64,000 bases of DNA from Thermodesulfovibrio yellowstonii DSM 11347 (lineage in GTDB: Bacteria; Nitrospirota; Thermodesulfovibrionia; Thermodesulfovibrionales; Thermodesulfovibrionaceae). Location: the NCBI RefSeq assembly GCF_000020985.1, contig NC_011296.1, positions 806,001 to 870,000 on the forward strand, written 5' to 3'. Made by a program: the position numbers and the translations under genes. The notes below the pieces were generated by a model. It was not told where the DNA came from, searched no databases, and saw nothing but the letters and a program-made list of their open reading frames with translations. Positions 2,364-57,284 of the stretch are shown piece after piece. How positions within the stretch are numbered: the first letter of the stretch is position 1; each line of letters starts with the position of its first letter.

Positions 2364-3110
2364 TTATTGAAATCTGAATCCTTCTGCCTTTTTTGCAAAC
2401 TGGCTATCTGGAAATTTTTCTTTTAAAAGTTTTAAATATTGCTTTGCTTTGTCTAACATATTAAGATTTTTGTATGAATCTACAAGCAAATAAAGAGTTT
2501 CATCCAGATTTTTGAAATCTGGATAGTTTTTAACAATTCCTTCAAATCTTCCAATAGCAGCCGTGTAAGAACCTTTTTTATGATAAAACTTGCCAATTAT
2601 AAGCTCCCCTTCTGCTATAATATTTCTACATTTTTGAATTCTTAAAGGAAGAATATCCCCATAGGGATGTCTTGGATACATTTTTTCAAGTTTTAAAAAT
2701 TCATTTAGTGCTTTTTGGGCTGTTCCAGCACCTCTTTCAGGTCCTTCTATTTGTCTAAAATATGCCATTCCAATACTATATTGGGCATAGGGAGCATAAG
2801 TAGATTCAGGGTAAAGCTCTATAAACCTTCTATATTCAGTAATTGCCAGCTCAGGTTCATCTTCTTTTAAATATGAATCAGCTATCTTAAGCTGGGCAAG
2901 AGGTGCATATTCCTTAGCTGATTCCCTGTTTTTTATTTCAAGGAGAAGCTTTCTTGCTTCTTCATACTCTTTTTTACTGACAAGTTCATCAGCTTTTTTT
3001 AAATAAACAACGGGATCAAACTCTTCTTTTTTAACAGCTTCTTTCCCACCACAACTGAGAAGCAGAGAAACAATAGCAGTAATGATAAGAAATTTAAACA
3101 AAATTTTCAT
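2364..3110 (-). CDS. bamD: BamD-like outer membrane assembly lipoprotein (TPR)
   Basis: This 248-residue protein has a lipoprotein signal peptide ending in the lipobox LLSC (lipidated C20), followed by several tetratricopeptide repeats (for example KADELVSKKEYEEARKLL and the AITEYRRFIELYPESTYA segment). This order and length match BamD/YfiO, the essential partner of BamA in folding beta-barrel proteins into the outer membrane. It heads the minus-strand operon with the siroheme gene immediately after it. A YbgF/CpoB-type TPR lipoprotein is the main alternative, but the YPES and YP-H motifs and the length favour BamD. Confidence 0.85.
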   Translation of the reverse strand: MKILFKFLIITAIVSLLLSCGGKEAVKKEEFDPVVYLKKADELVSKKEYEEARKLLLEIKNRESAKEYAPLAQLKIADSYLKEDEPELAITEYRRFIELYPESTYAPYAQYSIGMAYFRQIEGPERGAGTAQKALNEFLKLEKMYPRHPYGDILPLRIQKCRNIIAEGELIIGKFYHKKGSYTAAIGRFEGIVKNYPDFKNLDETLYLLVDSYKNLNMLDKAKQYLKLLKEKFPDSQFAKKAEGFRFQ

Positions 3111-3267
3111 AACATTTATTAAAACCTTAAATATTCAGTTTAGTCAAGCAGTCTTTCTTTACAAATTTTTCATCTGTCTTGGAGGGATTCGATATGTTCA
3201 ACTCTTGTATTGTTCCACTATTTTATCTCCGCAGATGAGATGTTGCTTAACTGATTTCAGAAATTTT

Positions 3268-3774
3268 TTATTTAAATTTGAAATTCAACCTTCTTAACAT
3301 CTCAAATGTATCTATATATTCTATTCTAAAATCCCTACAAATATTTGGGATAGGTATCTCCTTTTTAACATCGGGTTTATAGACTTCATGTGTGACTATT
3401 ATATTTCTGTTACTTAAAGCATATGCAACAAGCCATGCATCTGCATTTTCAGCATCATAAAATTCTTTTTTGGCTTCTTGAGTAAATTGTGAATGATTTT
3501 CTGCCCATTCTATAACTCTTCTATAACTTGTTAGAATAAAATCGTCATCTGTTGATTTAAACCATTCAAAAAAACTTCCCTTTGCCCATTTAGATAACTC
3601 ATCTTTACCTCTCAGGAGTTCATTTTTAACTCTATCAATGCTGATTAATTTACCTTTTTCAGCAAATTCTGATAATGCTTTCCAAAAAGGTGGAGCAATA
3701 TCAAAAGCATAATAGCGTCTTGCTGCTTCTATGAATACATTTGCATCTAAAAGGTAAGTTTCTTCTCTATCCAC
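3268..3774 (-). CDS. DUF4411-family PIN-domain toxin
   Basis: This 168-residue protein has a PIN-like nuclease fold: LLDANVFIEA near the N-terminus gives the first acidic residue, and later acidic positions lie in ENADAWLVAYAL and the region after IIVTHE. DUF4411 proteins are PIN-type RNases found next to XRE/ImmA-type genes as toxin-antitoxin pairs. Its start lies inside the end of the upstream antitoxin gene (28-bp overlap), so the two are co-translated with the antitoxin first. Its target is unknown; tRNA or mRNA cleavage would be expected from the fold. Confidence 0.85.
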   Translation of the reverse strand: MDREETYLLDANVFIEAARRYYAFDIAPPFWKALSEFAEKGKLISIDRVKNELLRGKDELSKWAKGSFFEWFKSTDDDFILTSYRRVIEWAENHSQFTQEAKKEFYDAENADAWLVAYALSNRNIIVTHEVYKPDVKKEIPIPNICRDFRIEYIDTFEMLRRLNFKFK

Positions 3775-4907
3775 TCAGTTTTTCCTTCAAATAATTTCTT
3801 CGTAAATTTCTCGTAAATCTCACCATATAATCCTGTTAATTTATAGGCTTCTCTATATAAAAGAGCCCCTTCTTTAACAGCGAGGTATACAATTTGACCA
3901 AATTTTTTTCCCACCCTTTGTAACTGCACCAAATAAAAATCCCCACCTTTATACTTAATTCTTTCTTTATTTAAATAGTATTTATAGAAATTCAAAAATT
4001 GTTCTTTATTAATCAAATTTATATCTAATGCTCTGCGTGCTATAACCAATTCACTAACTTTGAAATGCTTTGCAAGTTTCTGATATTTATCTTCATCATC
4101 CTTATAGGTTTCCCATATATCCCTAATAGCATTTTGAGGAACTAAAAATTCTGCAGCAACACGGTCACAAAATTGTTCAGTTTTATCATCTGCTGGAAGC
4201 AACTCTCTTAAGTCAAAAATAGCACTTTTGCCAAGCCAGACATGCACCAATTCATGAGCAAGAGTAAAAATTTGTGCTGCTCTGGCATCTTGTCCATTTA
4301 TGAAAACAAACGGAGCAAGTTTATCAGTAATAACAAATCCCCTGAACTCCTGAACATCCAGTTTCCTGCGAGTATTATTACCAACTATTCCATTAATAAT
4401 CACAAAAATACCTATCTCTTCTACAGCTTCTTTAAAATAATTGAATGCATGTTGCCATGTATTGAAAACCGCTGCCCAATTTTCTTTTAAACCTAATCTA
4501 TTTTTGATTTTAGCTGATACATCGTTAATGTCATCTTCCAGACTAACCGTTCCTACAAAATCAAGGGGTTCATTACCTGTTTGTAAAAAGTATTCTTTAA
4601 TCCAATCCTGTCTTTGTTTAATAATGTGAATTGTATCAATCAGTTCAGGGCTTAATTTCCTTTGTTCTCCTTTTGTTCTAAAAAATGGAATTGTGATTTC
4701 ATCTTCAGGTAGAGCGCGAGTGAAAAACATTCCGAATGGTATATAAAGCATCTTAGCAAGCTGTTCTGCCTGCTTAATGGTAGGTTTATCTTCATCATTA
4801 AGCCATTTATCAATTTTGGGAAATTTTTTCTTTATAATATCCAGGTTTAGCCCGCTTCTATTAATTGCCCATATTAAAATTTCTTTATTAATATCTATTT
4901 TGCTCAT
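3747..4907 (-). CDS. XRE-ImmA/IrrE metallopeptidase antitoxin
   Basis: This 386-residue protein has an N-terminal helix-turn-helix region (about residues 1-60, with KWLNDEDKPTIKQAEQLAKMLYIP) and an ImmA/IrrE zinc-peptidase domain with the HExxH motif in LAHELVHVW, followed by the later Glu in EQFCDRVAAEFLVP. This fusion occurs next to DUF4411 PIN toxins and acts as antitoxin and autorepressor. The gene precedes and overlaps the toxin gene, the usual type II order. There is no other gene for about 90 bp upstream, so its promoter should lie in 4908-4999, where autoregulation would act. Confidence 0.87.
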   Translation of the reverse strand: MSKIDINKEILIWAINRSGLNLDIIKKKFPKIDKWLNDEDKPTIKQAEQLAKMLYIPFGMFFTRALPEDEITIPFFRTKGEQRKLSPELIDTIHIIKQRQDWIKEYFLQTGNEPLDFVGTVSLEDDINDVSAKIKNRLGLKENWAAVFNTWQHAFNYFKEAVEEIGIFVIINGIVGNNTRRKLDVQEFRGFVITDKLAPFVFINGQDARAAQIFTLAHELVHVWLGKSAIFDLRELLPADDKTEQFCDRVAAEFLVPQNAIRDIWETYKDDEDKYQKLAKHFKVSELVIARRALDINLINKEQFLNFYKYYLNKERIKYKGGDFYLVQLQRVGKKFGQIVYLAVKEGALLYREAYKLTGLYGEIYEKFTKKLFEGKTEWIEKKLTF

Positions 4908-4999
4908 AAATTTCCTTCCTTATTTTACAACTTTTTTCCCCATTGAACAAGCATTTAAATTGAAGATTCTCATGATAATTTTCAAAATCAAACTTTTTA

Positions 5000-5557
5000 T
5001 TATCTATGAGGGTTTTTAATACTCACCTCTTTAATCTTTACCTCATACCGTGTTAGCCTTATGACATCTTTTTCTAATAATTCAATAATTTGTTCTTTTT
5101 TCAATTGAGGACTTATTTTGTCAATGTTAGCAATGCCTAATTCATCTTTATAGTCTTTGATTTTTTCGGCTATATCAAGTTTTAATTTCATAACTTCTAA
5201 TTGTTTCATTTCTTTATCATATTCCCAATCTCTAATTATTTTTATAAATTCAACAAATGCCTTTGCAGCGGCTGGAAACCCTATTGCAATGCCTAAAGCC
5301 AATTCAATTGATAAAGGAGAATGTAAATGAATATGATAAACCTTTAATTTATCGGCTTCTGACAAAGGGCGAGTGAATCTCCTATAAAAATAATCAGAAA
5401 CATAGATATTTTCAAATGTCTTAAGGTTTTCAAGATTATAAGGGGCAAGAAGCGCTAATCTATCATGAAGATAAACAAGGTCTTTAAGAAAAGTGGCTAT
5501 ATCTTCTAAATCATGAAGACACTTTTCCTCACATTCTATAATTAGTCGTGTAGTCAT
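5000..5557 (-). CDS. Unknown protein with one hydrophobic helix and coiled coil
   Basis: I do not recognise this 185-residue protein. I chose the ATG at 5557 because a GGAGG site sits 8 nt before it; the longer ORF start would place that site inside the gene. The protein has an acidic N-terminal half, a strongly hydrophobic stretch near residues 84-108 (LALGIAIGFPAAAKAF), then a charged helix rich in Lys/Glu likely to form a coiled coil. It lies between the toxin-antitoxin pair and the broken PrrC/RloC-like ATPase gene, on the same strand, so it may be a defence accessory or effector; that is inference from position only. Confidence 0.7.
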   Translation of the reverse strand: MTTRLIIECEEKCLHDLEDIATFLKDLVYLHDRLALLAPYNLENLKTFENIYVSDYFYRRFTRPLSEADKLKVYHIHLHSPLSIELALGIAIGFPAAAKAFVEFIKIIRDWEYDKEMKQLEVMKLKLDIAEKIKDYKDELGIANIDKISPQLKKEQIIELLEKDVIRLTRYEVKIKEVSIKNPHR

Positions 5558-5635
5558 AACCAAAACCTCCAAGATTTAATCCTAAATTTTAAACAACATC
5601 TGTCCTGATAACATTTTATTTCAATTTGCAAAATA

Positions 5636-7449
5636 TTAATTTATCAATGACTCACACAAAGCATTATAATGTTCTCTATCTTTATTCTGTAATTGAGTTA
5701 AAATTGTTATTACACAAGTTTCTACTTCATTGATATCAGGGAATTTTTGTATATGCTCTGGATTTTCTTCATGTGAATATTCATCCAAAACTTTGAGTGT
5801 AGATTTTTTTGTTGTTTCTTCACAATTAGTAAAAAATTTGTTACATTTATCTTTAAATTTTTTACCATCAGGGTACTTATAAAATAAATACGCTTCTATA
5901 AATCGTCTGGCTATATTGGGTAGAAGATAAAGTAATTCAAAACTTGATTTATCTTCTAATCCTTTAAAATCTTCAAGAATGCTGAATAAATAATTGTATT
6001 CAGATTTAAATCTTTTCAGAATAACAGGCAGATTTTCAATTATTGAGCATCTTTGGTTATTAATGCATACCTTCTTTATTAAATAAAAATTTTCTTTTTG
6101 CTCTTTAGTTTGTCTGTTTATTGTCCCTACAGGATCACTTTTAATCAAATCTTTTATTAAATTAAAAAAATCAAAATTGTGGGTTGTAATAAATAATTGT
6201 TTACAATTCAAAACTTTTTCGCTTAAAAAACCATATACTTTGAAAGTATGATTACTATCCAAACTTGACACCGGATCATCAATAAATATTATTGAATCAT
6301 TAATATTAAAACTGGTTTCCTCTAATTTAGTTATGAAGTAGATTAAAGCTATAATGTTTTTCTCACCTGTACTTAAATTTTTAGCAATATTTTCATTTCT
6401 ATAAATTTGATAAGTGCCATCATTCAGTGCTTTTAAATAAAGCTGATCATCTGAGAAGAAAGTTTTTAAATATTTATTAATTTTATCTGCTCCAATATTT
6501 GATCTAATTATTTCATTTTTAAATTTATCAATTTCTTTAGTAATTAATTCCATTTCTATATTTTTATTAGTTAACTCTTTAGTTAACTTCTCTATTTCTA
6601 TTTTCTTATTAAGATAATCCAAGTCGTGAATCGCCAATGCAGAATAGTGATTAAGTAATTCTTGTTTAATCTTATTTTTTTCTTCAGATAGTCCTTGAAT
6701 TTTTTTGTTATTTTGATTTATTAAATTATTTACTTCTTTCAGTATGCTATCTATCTCATCTTCAATATTTCCTAAAGATATCTTATCAATAACATCAAAT
6801 GGCTTATTTCTTTTTTCTTTTAATTTCTTAAGCAAATAAGTTATCTTTTCTTCTTTGATAGATTCTATACATTTCTTCAACTCTTCTTTCTTTATTCTAT
6901 AATTATCATGGAATTCCTCATAAAACCTTGCTTCGTCAGGAAGTTCAATTTTTTGTAAGTTATTTTTATATTCATTTATTTCTTTCTCAAGCAGATTTAT
7001 CTCGTCTATTAATTCATTAAATTCTTTTGAAAAATGCTTGTTTAATCTATCAAAAAGATCAGCGGGTAAATTGTTCCCACAAAATTGACACTGTTTCTCG
7101 TTTTTATGTAAATCAATACCCTCTCTGACCCAATTATTCAACTTAGGGTTATCTCTTAATTTTTGTATTACTCGTTGTACGGATATTTTTTTATTCAGTA
7201 CATTATTAGTCCTATTGGTTAATTCATTTACTTTTAAATGAACTGTAATGTTATCAATAGTTTTGTATTCTCTTTCATTTCTATAAGTATTTAATTTAGT
7301 CTCTAAATCCTTATCATTTAATATATATTTTTTGTAATTCTCACCTAAAATATTTATTTTATTTCCGAGTAAGGTTTTATCAAACTCTCGTTGATTAGTA
7401 ATATTAAGAATTTTTCTTATCTCCGAAGCTTTATTTGTTAAAGATTGTA
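5636..7449 (-). pseudogene. 3' part of a split PrrC/RloC-like AAA ATPase gene
   Basis: An open frame runs unbroken from the IS3 end at 7449 to a stop at 5636, about 603 codons. An internal ATG would make a 501-residue product, but the frame clearly extends upstream into the IS junction. It encodes the middle and C-terminus of an AAA_13 (RloC/PrrC-like) protein: a CQFCGN zinc-hook-like motif, long coiled coil, the ABC signature LSTGEKN, Walker B IIFIDDPVSSLD and the switch His in ITTHNFD. The C-terminal part has LPNIARRFIEAY and later YSHEEN, giving an R-x3-E then H arrangement as in anticodon nucleases. The Walker A half is missing here and lies at 12471-12825 on the other strand. Confidence 0.85.
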
Positions 7450-49654: not shown

Positions 49655-50682
49655 GTATTACATATAAAAAAGCAGGAGTTGATATTGATGAAGCAGATAA
49701 ATTTGTCAGCATGATTTCTCCTATTGTTAAAACGACATTTCGTAAAGAAGTTCTCACTGAAATAGGACTTTTTGCAGGATTATTTAAATTTGATGTAAAA
49801 AAATATAAAGAACCAGTGTTGGTTAGTGGAACAGATGGAGTTGGAACAAAGCTCAAAATAGCCTTTGAAGCAGATAAACACGATACAGTTGGAATAGACC
49901 TTGTTGCCATGTGTGTGAATGATATTTTAACAGTTGGTGCAGAACCCTTGTTTTTCCTTGATTACTTCGCAACTGGAAAACTTAATGCAGCAAAAGCTAC
50001 GGAAGTTATAAAAGGTATTGTTCAAGGTTGTAAAGAAGCTGGTTGTGCTCTTATAGGAGGGGAGACTGCAGAATTACCGAGGTTTTATAAAAAAAATGAA
50101 TATGACCTTGCAGGATTTGCTGTAGGTGTAGTTGATAGAAAAGAAATAATTGATGGTTCTTCAATAAAAGAAGGAGACGTTTTCATAGGTGTAGCATCTT
50201 CAGGGCTTCATAGCAATGGTTTTTCTCTTGCAAGAAAAGTCCTTTTTGATATAGGCAAATTGAGAATTGATCAGTATATACCTGAATTAAACTGTATCCT
50301 TGCAAAGGAACTACTTAAACCAACAGAAATTTATGTTAAAGCATATTTTGCCCTTAAAGATAAAGTCAAAGTTAAAGGTATGGCACATATAACTGGTGGA
50401 GGTATCCCCGGAAATTTATCCAGAATTTTACCTAAAAATATAACAGCAATTTTAGACAAAAATAGCTGGACTGTGCCTTCAATTTTTCATTTAATAAAAA
50501 ACATAGGTAAAATTAATGAAGCAGAGATGTTTAAAGTTTTTAACATGGGAATAGGTTATATTTTTGTTGTTGAACAAAATGAAATTCAAAAATCCTTAGC
50601 CATCTTAAATAAAAAGGGTTACAAAGCCTATTTAATTGGAAAAGCTTCAAAAGGTGGTGAAGATAAAATCACAATAAAATGA
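49651..50682 (+). CDS. purM: Phosphoribosylformylglycinamidine cyclo-ligase
   Basis: This 343-residue protein is PurM: AGVDIDEADKFV, SGTDGVGTKLKIAFE, CVNDILTVGAEPLFFLDYFATGKL, LIGGETAELPRFY and GMAHITGGGIPGNLSRILP. It makes aminoimidazole ribonucleotide in purine synthesis. It overlaps the histidine kinase gene by 4 bp. Confidence 0.97.
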   Translation: MSITYKKAGVDIDEADKFVSMISPIVKTTFRKEVLTEIGLFAGLFKFDVKKYKEPVLVSGTDGVGTKLKIAFEADKHDTVGIDLVAMCVNDILTVGAEPLFFLDYFATGKLNAAKATEVIKGIVQGCKEAGCALIGGETAELPRFYKKNEYDLAGFAVGVVDRKEIIDGSSIKEGDVFIGVASSGLHSNGFSLARKVLFDIGKLRIDQYIPELNCILAKELLKPTEIYVKAYFALKDKVKVKGMAHITGGGIPGNLSRILPKNITAILDKNSWTVPSIFHLIKNIGKINEAEMFKVFNMGIGYIFVVEQNEIQKSLAILNKKGYKAYLIGKASKGGEDKITIK

Positions 50683-51842
50683 AAATATTTCAGAAGGAAA
50701 CGCAGTTAGGTGAAATTTTTTTAAAGTTTATAGATATATATTCAGAATCTGTAATTGTTTTTGAACCTGAAAGATATGAAATATTATATATGAATCAGAA
50801 AGCAAAAGATTTTTTGGAAGGGAATCCAGATTTATCAACATTTTTTCAAGAAGATGAATATTTAAACTTCATAAAATTAATAAAAGATTGTCATAAAGTT
50901 GAAGAAAACAGGGTTATTAGTTTTAAAAGAAATGACAATAAAAAGGGAGTTTTGCTTTTTAGTTTATACCCCGTTGCATATGATGATTACAGGACAGTTT
51001 GTTTTACATTTAAAGATATTACAGAAAAAATTAATAAAAAAGAAGAAAAACGAAGAAAAAATGCTCAACTTATACTACAGGACAAGCTAAAATCTGTAGA
51101 TTTAGTTACATCCAGCATATCTCATGAAATAAACAATATTTGTAATTTTATGGTTAATAATCTGAAAATTACTTTTCAAGCATGGAATGATATTTTTACT
51201 ATAATTAAGGAATATGAAGATGAAAATGGAGAATTTTTGATAGGAGGGATTTCTTCTTCAGAAATAGATAAAGTAATACCTCGACTTATGATTTCAGTAA
51301 TAGATGGGATTAACAGAATTTCCGATACAATTGATGATTTTAGAAAATATGTGAAAGAAGGTTTGAAGTCAGAAACTGCGGTTATTGATATAAATGAGGT
51401 TGTAAGAAGAGTAGTTACAATTCTTAATCATCATATTTTTATTTATACAGAGAACTTTAATTTTAATTTTACTGAAGGATTGCCAAAGATTAAAGGCAAT
51501 ATGCAGAAATTAGAGCAACTAATAATAAATTTACTAATGAATGCATTACAGTCATTACCAAATAGACAGAGAGGAGTTTTTATTTCTACAGGTATGACAT
51601 CAGATAAAGTATATATTGAAATTAATGATGAGGGAGTAGGAATTCCAAAGAATATTATGCCTCATATATATGAACCTTTTTTCTCTACTAAATATTCATC
51701 AGGTGGTTCAGGGCTTGGACTTTATCTTTCCAAATCCATTATAGAAGATTTTGGTGGTGAAATTAATATTCAGTCTGAGGAAAATAGAGGAACAAAAGTA
51801 ACAATTTATCTTCCCTATGTTTTAGAAAATGGAAAATTTTAA
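50679..51842 (+). CDS. PAS-domain histidine kinase
   Basis: This 387-residue kinase has an N-terminal PAS domain (VFEPERYEILYMNQKAKDFL), a dimerisation/phospho-acceptor helix with SSISHEINNICNFM (probable His about 149), and a HATPase_c domain: LIINLLMNALQSLP (N box), INDEGVGIPK (G1), GGSGLGLYLSKSI (G2). No membrane segment is visible, so it is a cytoplasmic sensor. It overlaps the response regulator gene by 14 bp and is the partner of that protein. The ligand is unknown. Confidence 0.92.
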   Translation: MKIFQKETQLGEIFLKFIDIYSESVIVFEPERYEILYMNQKAKDFLEGNPDLSTFFQEDEYLNFIKLIKDCHKVEENRVISFKRNDNKKGVLLFSLYPVAYDDYRTVCFTFKDITEKINKKEEKRRKNAQLILQDKLKSVDLVTSSISHEINNICNFMVNNLKITFQAWNDIFTIIKEYEDENGEFLIGGISSSEIDKVIPRLMISVIDGINRISDTIDDFRKYVKEGLKSETAVIDINEVVRRVVTILNHHIFIYTENFNFNFTEGLPKIKGNMQKLEQLIINLLMNALQSLPNRQRGVFISTGMTSDKVYIEINDEGVGIPKNIMPHIYEPFFSTKYSSGGSGLGLYLSKSIIEDFGGEINIQSEENRGTKVTIYLPYVLENGKF

Positions 51843-53238
51843 TTACAGTGTTGCTATTGTAGATGATGAAAAGGAGGCACTATACTCTTATTCTCTTATT
51901 TTAAAACAGGCAGGGCTTAAAGATGTTGTTTTAATTCAAGATTCCCGTGAAATTCCTATTATTTTAAAAGAAAGAACTTTTTCTATTTTGCTTCTTGACC
52001 TTTCAATGCCGTATATATCAGGTTTTGATTTGCTAAAGTATCTTTCAGTAGAGTATCCAGAAATTCCAGTTATTATAATAACAGCAATAAAAGACATAGA
52101 AACTGCAGTTGAGTGTATGAAAATTGGTGCATGCGATTATCTCGTAAAGCCTATTGAAAAAAATAAGTTAATATCATCTATAAAAAAAGCATTAGAAATG
52201 AATAGGTTAAAAGAAGAAATTTTAGGATTAAAACATAGATTGATTGAAGATAAACTGGAACAAGAAAACGCTTTTTCAGAGATCATAACTGTTAATCAGA
52301 AAATGAGAGGAATTTTTAAATATATTGAAGTAATATCAAAAACTGAACAACCTGTTTTAGTTACAGGAGAAACAGGAACAGGAAAAGAACTCGTTGCAAG
52401 AGCAATACATAAGATAAGTGAAAAAAAGGGAGAATTTGTAGCAGTAAATGTTGCAGGTCTTGATGATACCATGTTTTCAGATACTTTATTCGGTCATAGA
52501 AAAGGGGCATTTACTGGAGCTTTTTCTAATAGGGAGGGATTGATTTCAAGAGCAAAGGGAGGGACCCTGTTTCTTGATGAGATTGGAGATTTATCAGAAG
52601 CTTCTCAGCTTAAGCTTTTAAGGGTTATTCAGGAAAAGGTCTATTATCCTTTGGGGTCTGACCTTCCTAAAAATACTGATGCAAGACTAATCGTTGCAAC
52701 CAATCAGGATATACAGGAAATGGTTAATAGTGGAAAGTTTAGAAAAGATTTATTTTATAGACTTAAAGCTCATCATGTTCATTTACCACCTTTAAGGGAA
52801 AGAAAGGATGATATTCCTGTTTTACTTGAATATTTTATTGAAGAGGCTGCTCTTTCTCTTTCAAAAAAACCTCCTAAATATCCTGAAGAATTGATAATAC
52901 TTTTGATGAATTATCCTTTTCCTGGCAACATAAGAGAATTAAAAATGATAGTTTATGATGCAGTAGCAAGATGTAAATCTAATTTTTTATCCTTGGAGAT
53001 TTTTAAAGATATGATAGATATAAGCAATACAATTGATAAGGAACTTAAAAGTGAGATAGTAAAGTTTTATATTCAGATGAGGTTTCCAGAAAGGCTTCCA
53101 ACCTTAAAAGAGATGGAAGAAATACTTGTTACCGAAGCTTTAAGAAGATCAAAAGGAAATCAGGGTATAGCAGCTTCTATGCTTGGTATAACAAGACAGG
53201 CACTCAACAAAAGACTACACAAAAAAACAACCCCCTGA
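51829..53238 (+). CDS. NtrC-family sigma-54-dependent response regulator
   Basis: This 469-residue activator has a receiver domain (VAIVDDEKEA, phospho-Asp in LLLDLSMPYISG, Lys in YLVKPIEK), a sigma-54 AAA+ domain (Walker A GETGTGKELVARAIH, the GAFTGA loop that contacts sigma-54, GTLFLDEIGDL) and a C-terminal Fis-type helix-turn-helix (GNQGIAASMLGITRQALNKRL). It is encoded with its kinase and lies directly upstream of the formate dehydrogenase genes, which have a sigma-54-like promoter; it is the probable activator of fdhAB. Confidence 0.94.
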   Translation: MENFNYSVAIVDDEKEALYSYSLILKQAGLKDVVLIQDSREIPIILKERTFSILLLDLSMPYISGFDLLKYLSVEYPEIPVIIITAIKDIETAVECMKIGACDYLVKPIEKNKLISSIKKALEMNRLKEEILGLKHRLIEDKLEQENAFSEIITVNQKMRGIFKYIEVISKTEQPVLVTGETGTGKELVARAIHKISEKKGEFVAVNVAGLDDTMFSDTLFGHRKGAFTGAFSNREGLISRAKGGTLFLDEIGDLSEASQLKLLRVIQEKVYYPLGSDLPKNTDARLIVATNQDIQEMVNSGKFRKDLFYRLKAHHVHLPPLRERKDDIPVLLEYFIEEAALSLSKKPPKYPEELIILLMNYPFPGNIRELKMIVYDAVARCKSNFLSLEIFKDMIDISNTIDKELKSEIVKFYIQMRFPERLPTLKEMEEILVTEALRRSKGNQGIAASMLGITRQALNKRLHKKTTP

Positions 53239-53324
53239 AAAAATTTTTTCTATATTTTAGATTAAGCAAAAAAAGTTGCACCCATTTATATTGCTAATTA
53301 ATTGAATAATATTAAAAAATTCTA

Positions 53325-53340
53325 TGGCATGAGAATTGAT
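53325..53340 (+). promoter_or_regulatory. Candidate sigma-54 promoter for fdhAB
   Basis: TGGCAT-N5-TTGAT matches the TGGCAC-N5-TTGCW consensus at GG and TTG with the correct spacing; the -12 C is A here. It lies downstream of the NtrC-type gene and 140 bp before fdhA, so the leader at 53360-53449 would be transcribed from it. Confidence 0.6.
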
Positions 53341-53359
53341 AATCTATAAAATAGATGAA

Positions 53360-53411
53360 CCGATTAAATCTTCCATACAGCCCCCTGAGAAGTTTAATCG
53401 GGAGACAGGGG
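53360..53411 (+). promoter_or_regulatory. Structured fdhA leader: hairpin with possible pseudoknot
   Basis: A perfect 9-bp stem pairs CCGATTAAA (53360-53368) with TTTAATCGG (53393-53401). In its loop CCCCTG (53382-53387) is complementary to CAGGGG (53406-53411) just after the stem, so the RNA can form a pseudoknot or, instead, a rival hairpin. The last GG of CAGGGG also belongs to the terminator stem that follows, so pairing choices would be mutually exclusive. I could not match it to a known riboswitch class by eye. Confidence 0.6.
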
Positions 53412-53449
53412 ATGCTTTTGAGGTGTGTAACTTCAAGGCATCCTTTTTT
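53410..53449 (+). terminator. Intrinsic terminator in the fdhA leader
   Basis: GGATGCTTT-GAGGT pairs with ACTTC-AAGGCATCC around loop GTGTA (14 pairs, two of them wobble, one bulged T), followed by six T at 53444-53449. It lies 30 bp before the fdhA start, on the coding strand, so it is an attenuator candidate rather than the end of the upstream gene, which stops 170 bp earlier. Confidence 0.72.
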
Positions 53450-53479
53450 ATTTAAAAAATTAAACAAGGAGGAGGTCAT

Positions 53480-56400
53480 ATGGAGATTACAAGACGAAGT
53501 TTTTTGAAAATCTCCACAGGTGCTCTGCTTCTTAGCTCGCTGGGACTTAATCTTGAGCCTGCAAAGGCTTATGCTGCTGAGCTGAGAATAAAGGGTGCTA
53601 AGGAGACAACGCATATCTGTCCTTACTGTGGATATGGATGTAGTATTATCGTTTATTCCAAAGAAGGAAAGGTGATTAATGCAGAAGGCGATCCTGATAG
53701 TCCTCTTAATGAAGGTTCTCTTTGTCCAAAAGGAGCTGCAGTTTATCAACTCGTAAACAATCCTAACAGAATTACTGAACCGATGTATCGTGCACCAGGT
53801 GCAACAGAATGGAAGAAGATTTCATGGGAGGAAGCATTAAACAAAATTGCAAGACTGGTCAAGAAAACAAGAGATAAGTATTTTATTACCAAAAATGCTA
53901 AAGGACAGGTTGTAAACAGAGTAGATGCTATCGCTCATGTTGGCTCTGCTGCCCTTGAAAATGAAGAATGCTATTTATTACAAAAATTAATGCGTTCATG
54001 GGGACTTGTTTATATTGAGCATCAGGCTCGTATATGACACTCTCCTACTGTAGCGGCTCTGGCAGAGTCGTTTGGTAGAGGAGCAATGACAAATCACTGG
54101 ATTGATTTTAGAAATGCAGATGTAATTTTAAACATGGGTGGTAATACAGCATCAAATCATCCCATGTCAATGAAATGGATAATGAAAGCCAAAGAACAAA
54201 GAGGTGCTAAACTTGTTGTAGTTGATCCTCGTTTTACACAAACAGCATCAAAAGCAGACCTCTATGTTCCGATTCGTCCAGGAACAGATATTGTATTTCT
54301 TGGTGGTTTAATAAAATACATAATTGACAATAACCTTTACTTTAAAGATTATGTATTAAATTATACGGATGCGTCATTCCTTGTTGATCCAAACTTTAAA
54401 ACAGCTGAAGACCTTGATGGATTATTTTCTGGCTATGATGAGAAGAAGAGAACTTATGACAAATCCACATGGAAATATCAGCTTGATGAAAATGGTATAC
54501 CAAAGAAAGATCCAACGCTTCAGAATCCAAACTGTGTATTTCAGCTTTTAAAGAAACAATACTCAAGATATACAATAGATACAGTTTCTAATATCACAGG
54601 AGCACCAAAAGATAAAATTGAAGAAGCATACAAAATTATTGGTTCTACAGGAAAACCTGACAGAACATGCACAGTCTCTTATGCAATGGGCTGGACCCAG
54701 CATACTGTAGGAACACAGAATATAAGAGCATTTTCAATTGTTCAACTCTTACTCGGCAATATGGGAATGGCTGGTGGTGGAATCAATGCTCAGAGAGGTG
54801 AACCAAATGTTCAGGGTTCAACTGACCATGCTTTGCTTTTCCATCTATGGCCTGGTTATAATCCTTCACCTGTAGCAAGTGATGTTGATTTAAAGACTTA
54901 TATTGAAAAATATACCCCTAAGACAAAAGAGCCAAAGAGTGTTAACTGGTGGGCTAACAGGCCAAAATATGTAATCAGTTACCTTAAAGAGCTTTATGGA
55001 GACAAAGCTACAAAGGAGAATGATTTCTGTTACAGTTATCTTCCAAAGAGAGATGATACACAAAACTGCTCATGGTTAGTGCTTTTTGATGAAATGTATA
55101 AAGGAAATATAAAAGGCTTCTTTGCCTGGGGACAGAACCCAGCTTGTGGTTCCTCAAATGCAGGGAAGGTGAGAAAAGCACTTGCAAAGCTTGAATGGCT
55201 TGTATGCGTGAATCTCTGGGACACAGAAACTTCTTCTTTCTGGAAAGGTCCAGGAATGGATCCCAAGAAGATAAAAACAGAAGTATTCATGCTTCCAGCT
55301 GCTTCATCACTGGAAAAAGAAGGTAGCAGAACAAACTCAAGCAGATTAGGACAGTGGTTATATCAAGCTGTAAAACCTATTGGAAAATGCAAATCCGATG
55401 AAGAGATAATGAATGAGCTTTATTGGAGAGTAAAGAAACTCTATCAAAAAGAAAAAGGAGCCTTTCCTGAGCCAATTATACATCTTACGTGGGATTATGG
55501 AGAAAAAGACCAAGATGGTAAGGTTAAACATATTGATGTTCACAAAGTAGCAAAAGCAATAAATGGATACTTTACAACAGATATACAGGAACATCCAATT
55601 GACAAAAAATCATACAAGAAAGGTCAGCAGGTGCCGAGCTTTATTTTACTTAGGGATGACGGAAGTACAGCCTGTGGTTGCTGGATATATTCAGGCAGTT
55701 ATACAGATGCTGGCAATATGATGGCAAGAAGAGGTAAGGAAGACCCAACAGGGCTTGGGCTTTATCCAAACTGGGCATGGTGCTGGCCCGTAAATAGAAG
55801 AATAATTTACAACCGTGCAAGCTGTGACCCACAGGGCAATCCATGGGATCCAAAGAGAGCAATACTTAAGTGGGATGCAACAAACAAGAAGTGGGTAGGA
55901 GATGTGCCTGACGGACCAGCTCCACCACTTGCAATGGAAGGTGGAAAACTTCCATTCATTATGAAACCTCTTGGAGTCGGAGCTATATTTGGACCAGGAC
56001 TTGCAGATGGTCCATTCCCAACACATTATGAGCCGCTGGAATGTCCTTTCCAGGAAAATCCACTTTACAAGAAAACAAGAATTAATCCGACAGTTAAGAT
56101 ATTTGGTACAGATGCAGATACCTTTGTATATTGTGATACAAGATATCCTTATGTAGGTACTACATACAGAGTAACAGAACACTGGCAGACTGGTGCAATG
56201 ACAAGACATCAGGAGTGGTTGCTTGAACTTCAACCCCAGATATTTGCAGAAATAGACCCTGTACTTGCAAAGGAAAAGGGAATAAAGAGCGGAGACAAAG
56301 TAATTGTATCTTCTGCAAGAGGAAAACTCTGGGCTATAGCTATAGTTACAGACAGATTGCAACCATTTAAAGTAATGGGACAAACCATACACATGGTAGG

Positions 56401-56542
56401 ACTGCCATGGCATTATGGCTGGAGATTCCCGAAAGATGGTTCAGGTGGAGATAGTGCAAATCTGCTTACCCCGACAATTGGTGATGCAAATACCATGATA
56501 CCTGAAACAAAGGCATTCATGGTAAACATAGAGAAGGCATAG
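53480..56542 (+). CDS. fdhA: Periplasmic formate dehydrogenase catalytic subunit, selenoprotein
   Basis: The frame is continuous from ATG 53480 to 56542 if the UGA at 54035-54037 is read as selenocysteine (Sec186), giving 1020 residues. It has a Tat signal (TRRSFLK), the 4Fe-4S motif CPYCGYGC with a fourth Cys in SLCPKGAA, then U-HSPTVAALAESFGRGAMTNHW as in Fdh-G/FdhA, and molybdopterin domains (NMGGNTASNHP, WGQNPACGSSNAG, LELQPQIFAEIDP). It oxidises formate to CO2 with Mo- or W-bis-MGD in the periplasm. A strong AGGAGGAGG site precedes the ATG. Confidence 0.95.
54035..54083 (+). promoter_or_regulatory. Selenocysteine UGA codon and bacterial SECIS element
   Basis: The in-frame UGA is followed within 17-36 nt by a hairpin: CGGCTCT-GGC-AGAGTCG (54054-54070), with an outer CTAC/GTAG pairing (54045-54048 with 54075-54078). 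Position and shape match bacterial SECIS elements bound by SelB, as in fdhF and fdnG. Confidence 0.8.
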
Positions 56543-56552
56543 GAGGTGAAAC

Positions 56553-57284
56553 ATGGCACGTAAAGGATTATTAATAACACCAGATATATGCATAGGATGT
56601 AGAGCCTGTCAGGTTGCATGCAAAGAATGGAATCAGCTTCCTGCAAGTAAGACAAAAAATTACGGAACTTATGAAAATCCACCTGACCTGGATGGAAATA
56701 CATACAACAAAATCAGATTTATAGAGCATAAGGACCCTAAGGGATTTCGCTGGCTTTTTGTAAGTCAACGCTGCATGCATTGTGGAGAGCCTGCTTGTGT
56801 TCAGATATGTCCTGTTGGAGCATTGATGAAAGATAAGGAAACAGGAATTGTTTATTATGACAAAAACAAATGCATAGCCTGTCATGCCTGTAAGTCTGCC
56901 TGCCCCTTTGATGTACCAAGATATGATGACGGTGGAAAGGGTAAGATAGCAAAATGTCATCTTTGCATAGACAGAGTAAAGGCTGGACTTACACCTGCCT
57001 GTGCAAAGACCTGTCCAACAGGAGCAATTAAATATGGAGACAGAGATGCATTGATAAAAGAGGCAAAGGCAAAGGGCTTTAAGCTTTATGGAGAGACAGA
57101 TCTTGGTGGATTGGGTGTAGTATTTGCTCTCAAGGATTCACCAAAGGTCTACAAACTTGCAGAGAATCCGAGAATATCAGAGTCTGTGGCATTCTGGGGT
57201 TCTGTATTAAGAACACTTGTAGGAAGAAGTGGTTCAACTACATCTTCGTTCATCAAATATCTTGCTCAAAAATCTACTGAATAA
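56553..57284 (+). CDS. fdhB: Formate dehydrogenase iron-sulfur subunit
   Basis: This 243-residue ferredoxin-type protein has four 4Fe-4S sites (CIGCRACQVAC near residues 13-23, CMHCGEPACVQIC, CIACHACKSAC, CHLC plus CAKTC). It takes electrons from FdhA. No signal peptide is present, so it is expected to be exported with FdhA. There is no convincing C-terminal membrane helix and no cytochrome subunit gene follows, as in the soluble FdhAB of Desulfovibrio, which donates to cytochromes c. GGAGG precedes the ATG. Confidence 0.95.
   Translation: MARKGLLITPDICIGCRACQVACKEWNQLPASKTKNYGTYENPPDLDGNTYNKIRFIEHKDPKGFRWLFVSQRCMHCGEPACVQICPVGALMKDKETGIVYYDKNKCIACHACKSACPFDVPRYDDGGKGKIAKCHLCIDRVKAGLTPACAKTCPTGAIKYGDRDALIKEAKAKGFKLYGETDLGGLGVVFALKDSPKVYKLAENPRISESVAFWGSVLRTLVGRSGSTTSSFIKYLAQKSTE

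What the first reader, a model, noticed from the sequence alone, without database searches (positions are those of the whole stretch)
53360..53449. Possible novel cis-regulatory RNA before formate dehydrogenase
The leader holds a perfect 9-bp stem, a loop segment CCCCTG complementary to CAGGGG after the stem (pseudoknot or competing hairpin), and then a strong intrinsic terminator whose first bases overlap CAGGGG. Formation of the CCCCTG-CAGGGG pairing would compete with the base of the terminator and so favour read-through into fdhA. Candidate ligands would be molybdenum/tungsten cofactor, formate-related metabolites or selenium status. The linker across the 9-bp stem is only 4 nt, so the mutually exclusive form may be more likely than a full pseudoknot.
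Basis: partly seen in the sequence, partly recalled or inferred. Interest (0 to 1): 0.7.

Follow-up and report, generated by a model that had tools for sequence, protein, structure and literature searches.

The report
Conserved attenuator RNA before formate dehydrogenase
In every Thermodesulfovibrio genome that holds the gene, the selenium-containing formate dehydrogenase mRNA starts with the same small hairpin RNA followed at once by a transcription stop signal, so the gene is probably made only when an unknown signal switches the stop off.

Summary
The window matches Thermodesulfovibrio (2,003,803-bp genome). The leader (53352-53449) precedes the selenocysteine fdhA in 14 of 14 congeneric loci. 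It holds a near-invariant hairpin (CCGAUUAAA/UUUAAUCGG, loop UUCCAUACAGCCCCCUGA), a G-run 4-7 nt after it, and an intrinsic terminator that overlaps the G-run. Core identity is 83-98% where fourfold-degenerate fdhA sites are only 42-57% identical. The terminator has about ten pairs with compensatory changes. Its T-run lies 34-39 nt before the start codon (75 in one species), so it must sit in the fdhA 5' UTR. Conservation begins 13-18 nt after a conserved sigma-54-like promoter box, next to a linked histidine kinase and NtrC-type regulator. There is no Rfam match. The element was not found outside the genus and is absent from a cysteine-type fdhA paralogue.

Best reading: a new, genus-restricted candidate attenuator, default OFF, turned ON when the C-rich loop captures the G-run. 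The loop/G-run pairing is conserved but not proven by covariation, because the C-run never varies. The ligand or protein is unknown. Leader-peptide, Moco-riboswitch, SECIS and antisense-sRNA explanations were tested and are not favoured.

The parts
53266..53279 (+). conserved dyad GCAA-N6-TTGC(ACCC), probable binding site (UAS) for the adjacent NtrC-type regulator
   Evidence: present with small changes in all 13 genus loci lined up; function inferred
53325..53340 (+). sigma-54-like promoter TGGCATGAGAATTGAT (-24/-12; consensus TGGCACG-N4-TTGCW)
   Evidence: GG and TTG at fixed spacing in all loci; C of the -12 GC replaced by A/T in most; rpoN present in the genome; activator gene adjacent
53352..53359 (+). 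conserved 5' end of the leader (U)AGAUGAA, at the predicted transcript start
   Evidence: A3-A6 invariant in 14 species; begins 13-18 nt after the -12 TG
53360..53368 (+). 5' arm of hairpin P1, CCGATTAAA
   Evidence: 7 of 13 P1 pairs never vary; first pair C-G to U-A in G014
53370..53373 (+). inner extension of P1, CTTC, pairs with 53389-53392
   Evidence: forms in most species with alternative bulge positions
53374..53388 (+). conserved loop CATACAGCCCCCTGA with mini-hairpin CAG[CCCC]CTG; holds CCCCTG 53382-53387
   Evidence: loop identity to G000 80-100% in 13 species against 44-57% at fourfold fdhA sites; A-T to T-A exchange in G008/G013
53389..53401 (+). 3' arm of P1, GAAG + TTTAATCGG
53406..53411 (+). 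CAGGGG, partner of the loop C-run and outer base of the terminator
   Evidence: run of at least 3 G in 13 of 14 species (GGAG in G009) at 4-7 nt after P1; GGGG in about 1% of 17-nt stretches of the window
53410..53449 (+). intrinsic terminator: hairpin GGATGC...GCATCC and TTTTTT
   Evidence: predicted in all 14; several terminator pairs kept through changes on both sides; -7.6 to -17.4 kcal/mol at 65 C
53468..53475 (+). Shine-Dalgarno GGAGGAGG of fdhA
   Evidence: conserved
53480..56542 (+). fdhA, formate dehydrogenase catalytic subunit with in-frame TGA (Sec186)
   Evidence: SECIS-like hairpin after the TGA
56553..57284 (+). fdhB, 4Fe-4S subunit
51829..53238 (+). NtrC-type sigma-54-dependent response regulator (receiver + AAA + Fis HTH), linked to the leader in the genus
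50679..51842 (+). histidine kinase with PAS domain, partner of the regulator

Best explanation
The element is a cis-acting transcription-attenuation leader of the sigma-54-driven fdhAB mRNA. Transcription starts at about 53351 (inferred). The nascent RNA folds hairpin P1, which displays a conserved C-rich loop. By default the terminator at 53410-53449 forms and stops transcription before fdhA. When an unknown effector (metabolite, metal cofactor or RNA-binding protein) binds the conserved P1 loop, the loop C-run holds the G-run just 3' of P1 (pseudoknot), the base of the terminator cannot close, and polymerase reads through. Shown by sequence comparison: the conserved hairpin, the conserved terminator inside the fdhA 5' UTR, and the overlap of G-run and terminator. 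Inferred: the pseudoknot as antiterminator, the ON polarity and the existence of an effector.
For: Leader in 14 of 14 genus loci with the gene, one strong copy per genome. Core 83-98% identical while fourfold fdhA sites are 42-57% identical, so it is under strong purifying selection. Terminator pairs keep complementarity through double changes. T-run only 34-39 nt from the ATG in 13 of 14, which leaves little room for another promoter. G-run overlaps the terminator base in every species, and blocking it costs 3-10 kcal/mol at 65 C. In G000, G002, G008 and G010 the outer two Gs have no C partner in the terminator, yet they are conserved. Conservation starts at the predicted sigma-54 transcription start. 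No trans-encoded complement conserved in the genus.
Against: The pseudoknot has no compensatory change because all five loop Cs are invariant; shuffle controls do not exceed chance for covariation. G009 has GGAG and G013 only GGG, so the pairing is weak there. The 4-7 nt linker is short for crossing a 9-13 bp stem. The duplex (-3 to -10 kcal/mol at 65 C) is weaker than most of the terminators. All evidence comes from one genus. There is no expression, start-site or termination data.
Confidence: 0.58

Rival explanations
1. Protein-controlled attenuator: a dedicated RNA-binding protein, not a small molecule, reads the P1 loop, either as antiterminator (ON) or by masking the C-run (OFF).
For: Near-invariant loop and stem sequence, single copy per genome, narrow phylogenetic range and one target operon fit a lineage-specific protein-RNA pair as well as a riboswitch; the conserved part is small for an aptamer.
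Against: No candidate RNA-binding protein gene is linked: neighbours are a kinase, a DNA-binding regulator, fdhB and a radical-SAM gene.
Confidence: 0.3
2. Small-molecule riboswitch for a formate-dehydrogenase-related ligand (Mo/W cofactor, selenium status, formate or C1 metabolite).
For: Associated with the Sec enzyme; the Cys-type paralogue in G008 lacks the leader and the regulator genes. No known Moco RNA in this genome, so cofactor control would otherwise be missing. The overlap of pseudoknot and terminator resembles ON-type pseudoknot riboswitches.
Against: Only one target gene; no cofactor, transport or selenium gene carries it. The G008 contrast is a single case.
Confidence: 0.25
3. 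Leader-peptide attenuation: an ORF starting at ATG 53355 is open for at least 33 codons in all 14 species, and ribosome stalling decides the fold.
For: ATG invariant and frame open in all 14.
Against: Variable columns by codon position are 4, 9 and 4 of 16 for positions 1, 2 and 3, the reverse of coding; no Shine-Dalgarno; predicted start 3-5 nt upstream; no repeated regulatory codon; openness within the nearly invariant core is not independent evidence.
Confidence: 0.06
4. DNA operator: P1 is an inverted-repeat binding site for a transcription factor, and the terminator simply ends leakage from the upstream operon.
For: P1 is a perfect inverted repeat with conserved primary sequence.
Against: The spacer is as conserved as the arms; the C-to-T/G-to-A double change in G014 keeps the pair but alters the operator; the terminator is downstream of the promoter and 34-39 nt from the ATG, so any fdhA transcript must cross it; a separate dyad already lies upstream of the sigma-54-like box.
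Confidence: 0.1
5. SECIS-like SelB-binding hairpin that senses selenocysteyl-tRNA.
For: The gene encodes a selenoprotein; the Cys paralogue lacks the leader; P1 has a bulged U near the loop in this species.
Against: The fdhA SECIS-like hairpin after the UGA has a short G-rich apical loop (GGC/GGG), unlike the C-rich leader loop; the bulge changes side among species.
Confidence: 0.05

Closest known systems
Pseudoknot riboswitches with overlapping terminators (preQ1-I, fluoride/crcB), from general knowledge
   Same: Small hairpin-pseudoknot whose 3' strand is also the base of an intrinsic terminator; ligand-stabilised pseudoknot would give ON
   Different: No sequence or covariance match to any Rfam family; longer A/U-rich stem; short linker; no ligand known
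Moco/Tuco riboswitch RF01055 (Regulski et al. 2008, cited in PMC9971707)
   Same: Cofactor class used by the regulated enzyme
   Different: Much larger (135 positions); no match in the window or the genome
SECIS elements / SECIS-like leader of E. coli selAB (from memory)
   Same: Hairpin in a selenoprotein-related mRNA
   Different: Different loop, no conserved bulged U, located in a 5' UTR with a terminator
Sec/Cys isoenzyme switching by selenium, e.g. Methanococcus maripaludis (PMC11097638)
   Same: G008 has a Sec and a Cys formate dehydrogenase, only the Sec one with the leader
   Different: One genome only; mechanism and response to selenium unknown here

Membership tests
Transcription-attenuation leader (general kind) | Intrinsic terminator between promoter and start codon of the controlled gene | tested here: met
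   Covarying terminator in 14 species, T-run 34-75 nt before ATG, downstream of the conserved promoter-like box
Transcription-attenuation leader (general kind) | Alternative structure that excludes the terminator | tested here: inconclusive
   C-run/G-run complementarity kept and overlaps the terminator in all, but no compensatory changes
Transcription-attenuation leader (general kind) | Signal-dependent change in read-through | not testable with these tools
   needs transcription assays
Riboswitch | Direct ligand binding by the RNA | not testable with these tools
   needs in-line probing
Moco RNA RF01055 | Match to the covariance model | tested here: not met
Any Rfam 15 family | Gathering-score match | tested here: not met
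   (window and 14 genus loci); best sub-threshold hits at E 4-6
Leader-peptide attenuator | Coding-type substitution pattern in a short ORF with SD | tested here: not met
   codon-position counts
SECIS element | Apical loop as in the gene's own SECIS-like hairpin and a conserved bulged U | tested here: not met
Target of a trans-encoded antisense sRNA | Complement of the loop elsewhere in the genomes | tested here: not met
   no conserved second site in 16 genus genomes, 17 nt with up to 2 mismatches

The most novel reading that the evidence does not exclude
A new riboswitch class, confined to Thermodesulfovibrio, that senses selenium status or the Mo/W cofactor and permits transcription of the selenocysteine formate dehydrogenase only when the enzyme can be completed.
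Probability: 0.15. Interest if true: 0.85.

Novelty: new member of a known kind. Interest (0 to 1): 0.52.

Why it matters
It appears to be an undescribed RNA switch family controlling a selenium- and probably Mo/W-dependent CO2/formate enzyme in thermophilic sulfate reducers. If it responds to selenium or the cofactor it would show how cells avoid making a costly metalloenzyme they cannot finish. The fixed architecture and a hairpin that is only marginally stable at 65 C make it a tractable thermophile model for pseudoknot-controlled termination.

Tried and rejected
Rfam scan of window, leader and relatives: no match. Covariance search outside the genus: only weak hits, E 0.005-0.01 per genome; the hit in G023 lies inside a long ORF, those in G150 and G254 lack the conserved loop. 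Viral contigs with the 15-nt loop: 31 exact hits, about chance, none scoring well with the model. L083 inverted repeat upstream of fdhA (E 0.19): no terminator, taken as chance. Conserved peptide in the leader: rejected by codon positions. Antisense sRNA: none. First pair count used a frame-shifted structure string and was repeated correctly. Literature: no paper found describing this leader.

Full report
What is there. The window lies in a 2,003,803-bp single-contig genome; the size and relatives fit Thermodesulfovibrio yellowstonii (species name from memory; congeners named). The gene at 53480-56542 is a formate dehydrogenase alpha subunit with an in-frame TGA read as selenocysteine 186, followed by fdhB. 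Upstream lie a PAS histidine kinase and an NtrC-type response regulator.

Conservation. The locus was found in 14 of 16 congeneric genomes, and all 14 carry the leader; the two without the locus are 66-72% complete. Aligned without gaps over 63 positions, the core is near-invariant: AUGAACCGAUUAAAUYUUCCAUACAGCCCCCUGA..AAGUUUAAUCGG. In the pairwise comparisons printed, core identity is 83-98% while fourfold-degenerate sites of the same fdhA genes are 42-57% identical. Each genome has one strong copy. No convincing match occurs among the other genomes of a 396-genome phylum sample or in 91 other loci fetched with fdhA, which include Thermodesulfobacterium, Desulfobulbales and other Nitrospirota. 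One outgroup (L022) has the regulator next to fdhA but no such leader. The element is therefore, on present data, a genus-level innovation.

Structure. P1 is supported by one compensatory exchange (C-G to U-A in G014) and otherwise by invariance. The inner helix varies but stays mostly paired. The loop can form CAG[CCCC]CUG, whose middle pair is exchanged A-U to U-A in G008/G013. The terminator is well supported: RNAalifold lists 11 pairs with changes on both sides over the whole leader, eight of them in the terminator. The loop/G-run pairing is conserved as CCCC/GGGG in 12 of 14, CCC/GGG in G013 and CCUG/CAGG in G009; the pair count shows lower agreement for two species (G001, G007) because their G-run is shifted by one base. 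It has no compensatory change, so it is a conserved complementarity, not a proven helix.

Logic of the switch. The promoter-like box TGGCAT-N5-TTG is conserved (13 loci by pattern; G001 has AGGCAA..TTGC), and sequence conservation resumes 13-18 nt after its -12 TG, where a sigma-54 transcript should begin. rpoN is present. The terminator's T-run starts 34-39 nt before the ATG in 13 species and 75 nt in G003. With this little room the fdhA transcript must start upstream and cross the terminator. At 65 C the terminator (-7.6 to -17.4 kcal/mol) is more stable than P1 (-2.7 to -6.2), so the default state should be termination. Blocking the G-run weakens the terminator by 3-10 kcal/mol in all 14. 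In four species the outer two Gs have no partner in the terminator but are kept, which points to a second role such as pairing with the loop. These are model energies without pseudoknot terms and without ions or protein.

What it is not. It is no Rfam family. The Moco riboswitch is absent from the genome. A leader ORF is open in all species, but substitutions concentrate on second codon positions and spare third positions, so the sequence is not conserved as protein. It does not resemble the gene's own SECIS-like hairpin. No antisense partner is conserved.

Hint at the signal. In G008 a second, cysteine-type fdhA (L033) lacks the leader and the kinase-regulator pair, while the Sec copy has both. 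This suits a selenium- or cofactor-related signal, but it is one genome and the second contig could be a binning artefact.

Verdict. Real, conserved, and very probably a transcription attenuator; it is not described in the sources searched. Pseudoknot mechanism likely but unproven; effector unknown. It is a new family of a known kind.

Noticed in passing
L047, L063, L067, L071, L072, L075, L078 (last ~90 nt before fdhA): Desulfobulbales-type fdhA genes share a different conserved leader: GGTYCGGTT..TGCCGGGTTTCACACTTYTT..CCTCACTTGTGATAAACAAG-AAAGGAG, with a hairpin before a T-rich stretch and a second hairpin beside the Shine-Dalgarno; possibly another fdhA attenuator.
   Followed up: no
L033 (CALDSV010000040.1) 3001-6075: Second fdhA in the G008 genome with cysteine in place of selenocysteine, without leader, kinase or regulator upstream in the held sequence.
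   Followed up: partly
window 53266-53279: Dyad GCAA-N6-TTGC(ACCC) conserved upstream of the sigma-54-like promoter, probable site of the adjacent NtrC-type regulator.
   Followed up: partly
window 50679-53238: Kinase/NtrC-type regulator pair upstream of fdhAB; regulator present in all genus loci whose sequence reaches it, kinase in all that reach far enough; an adjacent regulator also occurs in L022 from another family.
   Followed up: partly
L083 2359-2410: Inverted repeat CCGCTTAAA..TTTAAGCGG upstream of another Nitrospirota fdhA, similar to P1 arms with one pair exchanged, but without a terminator.
   Followed up: partly
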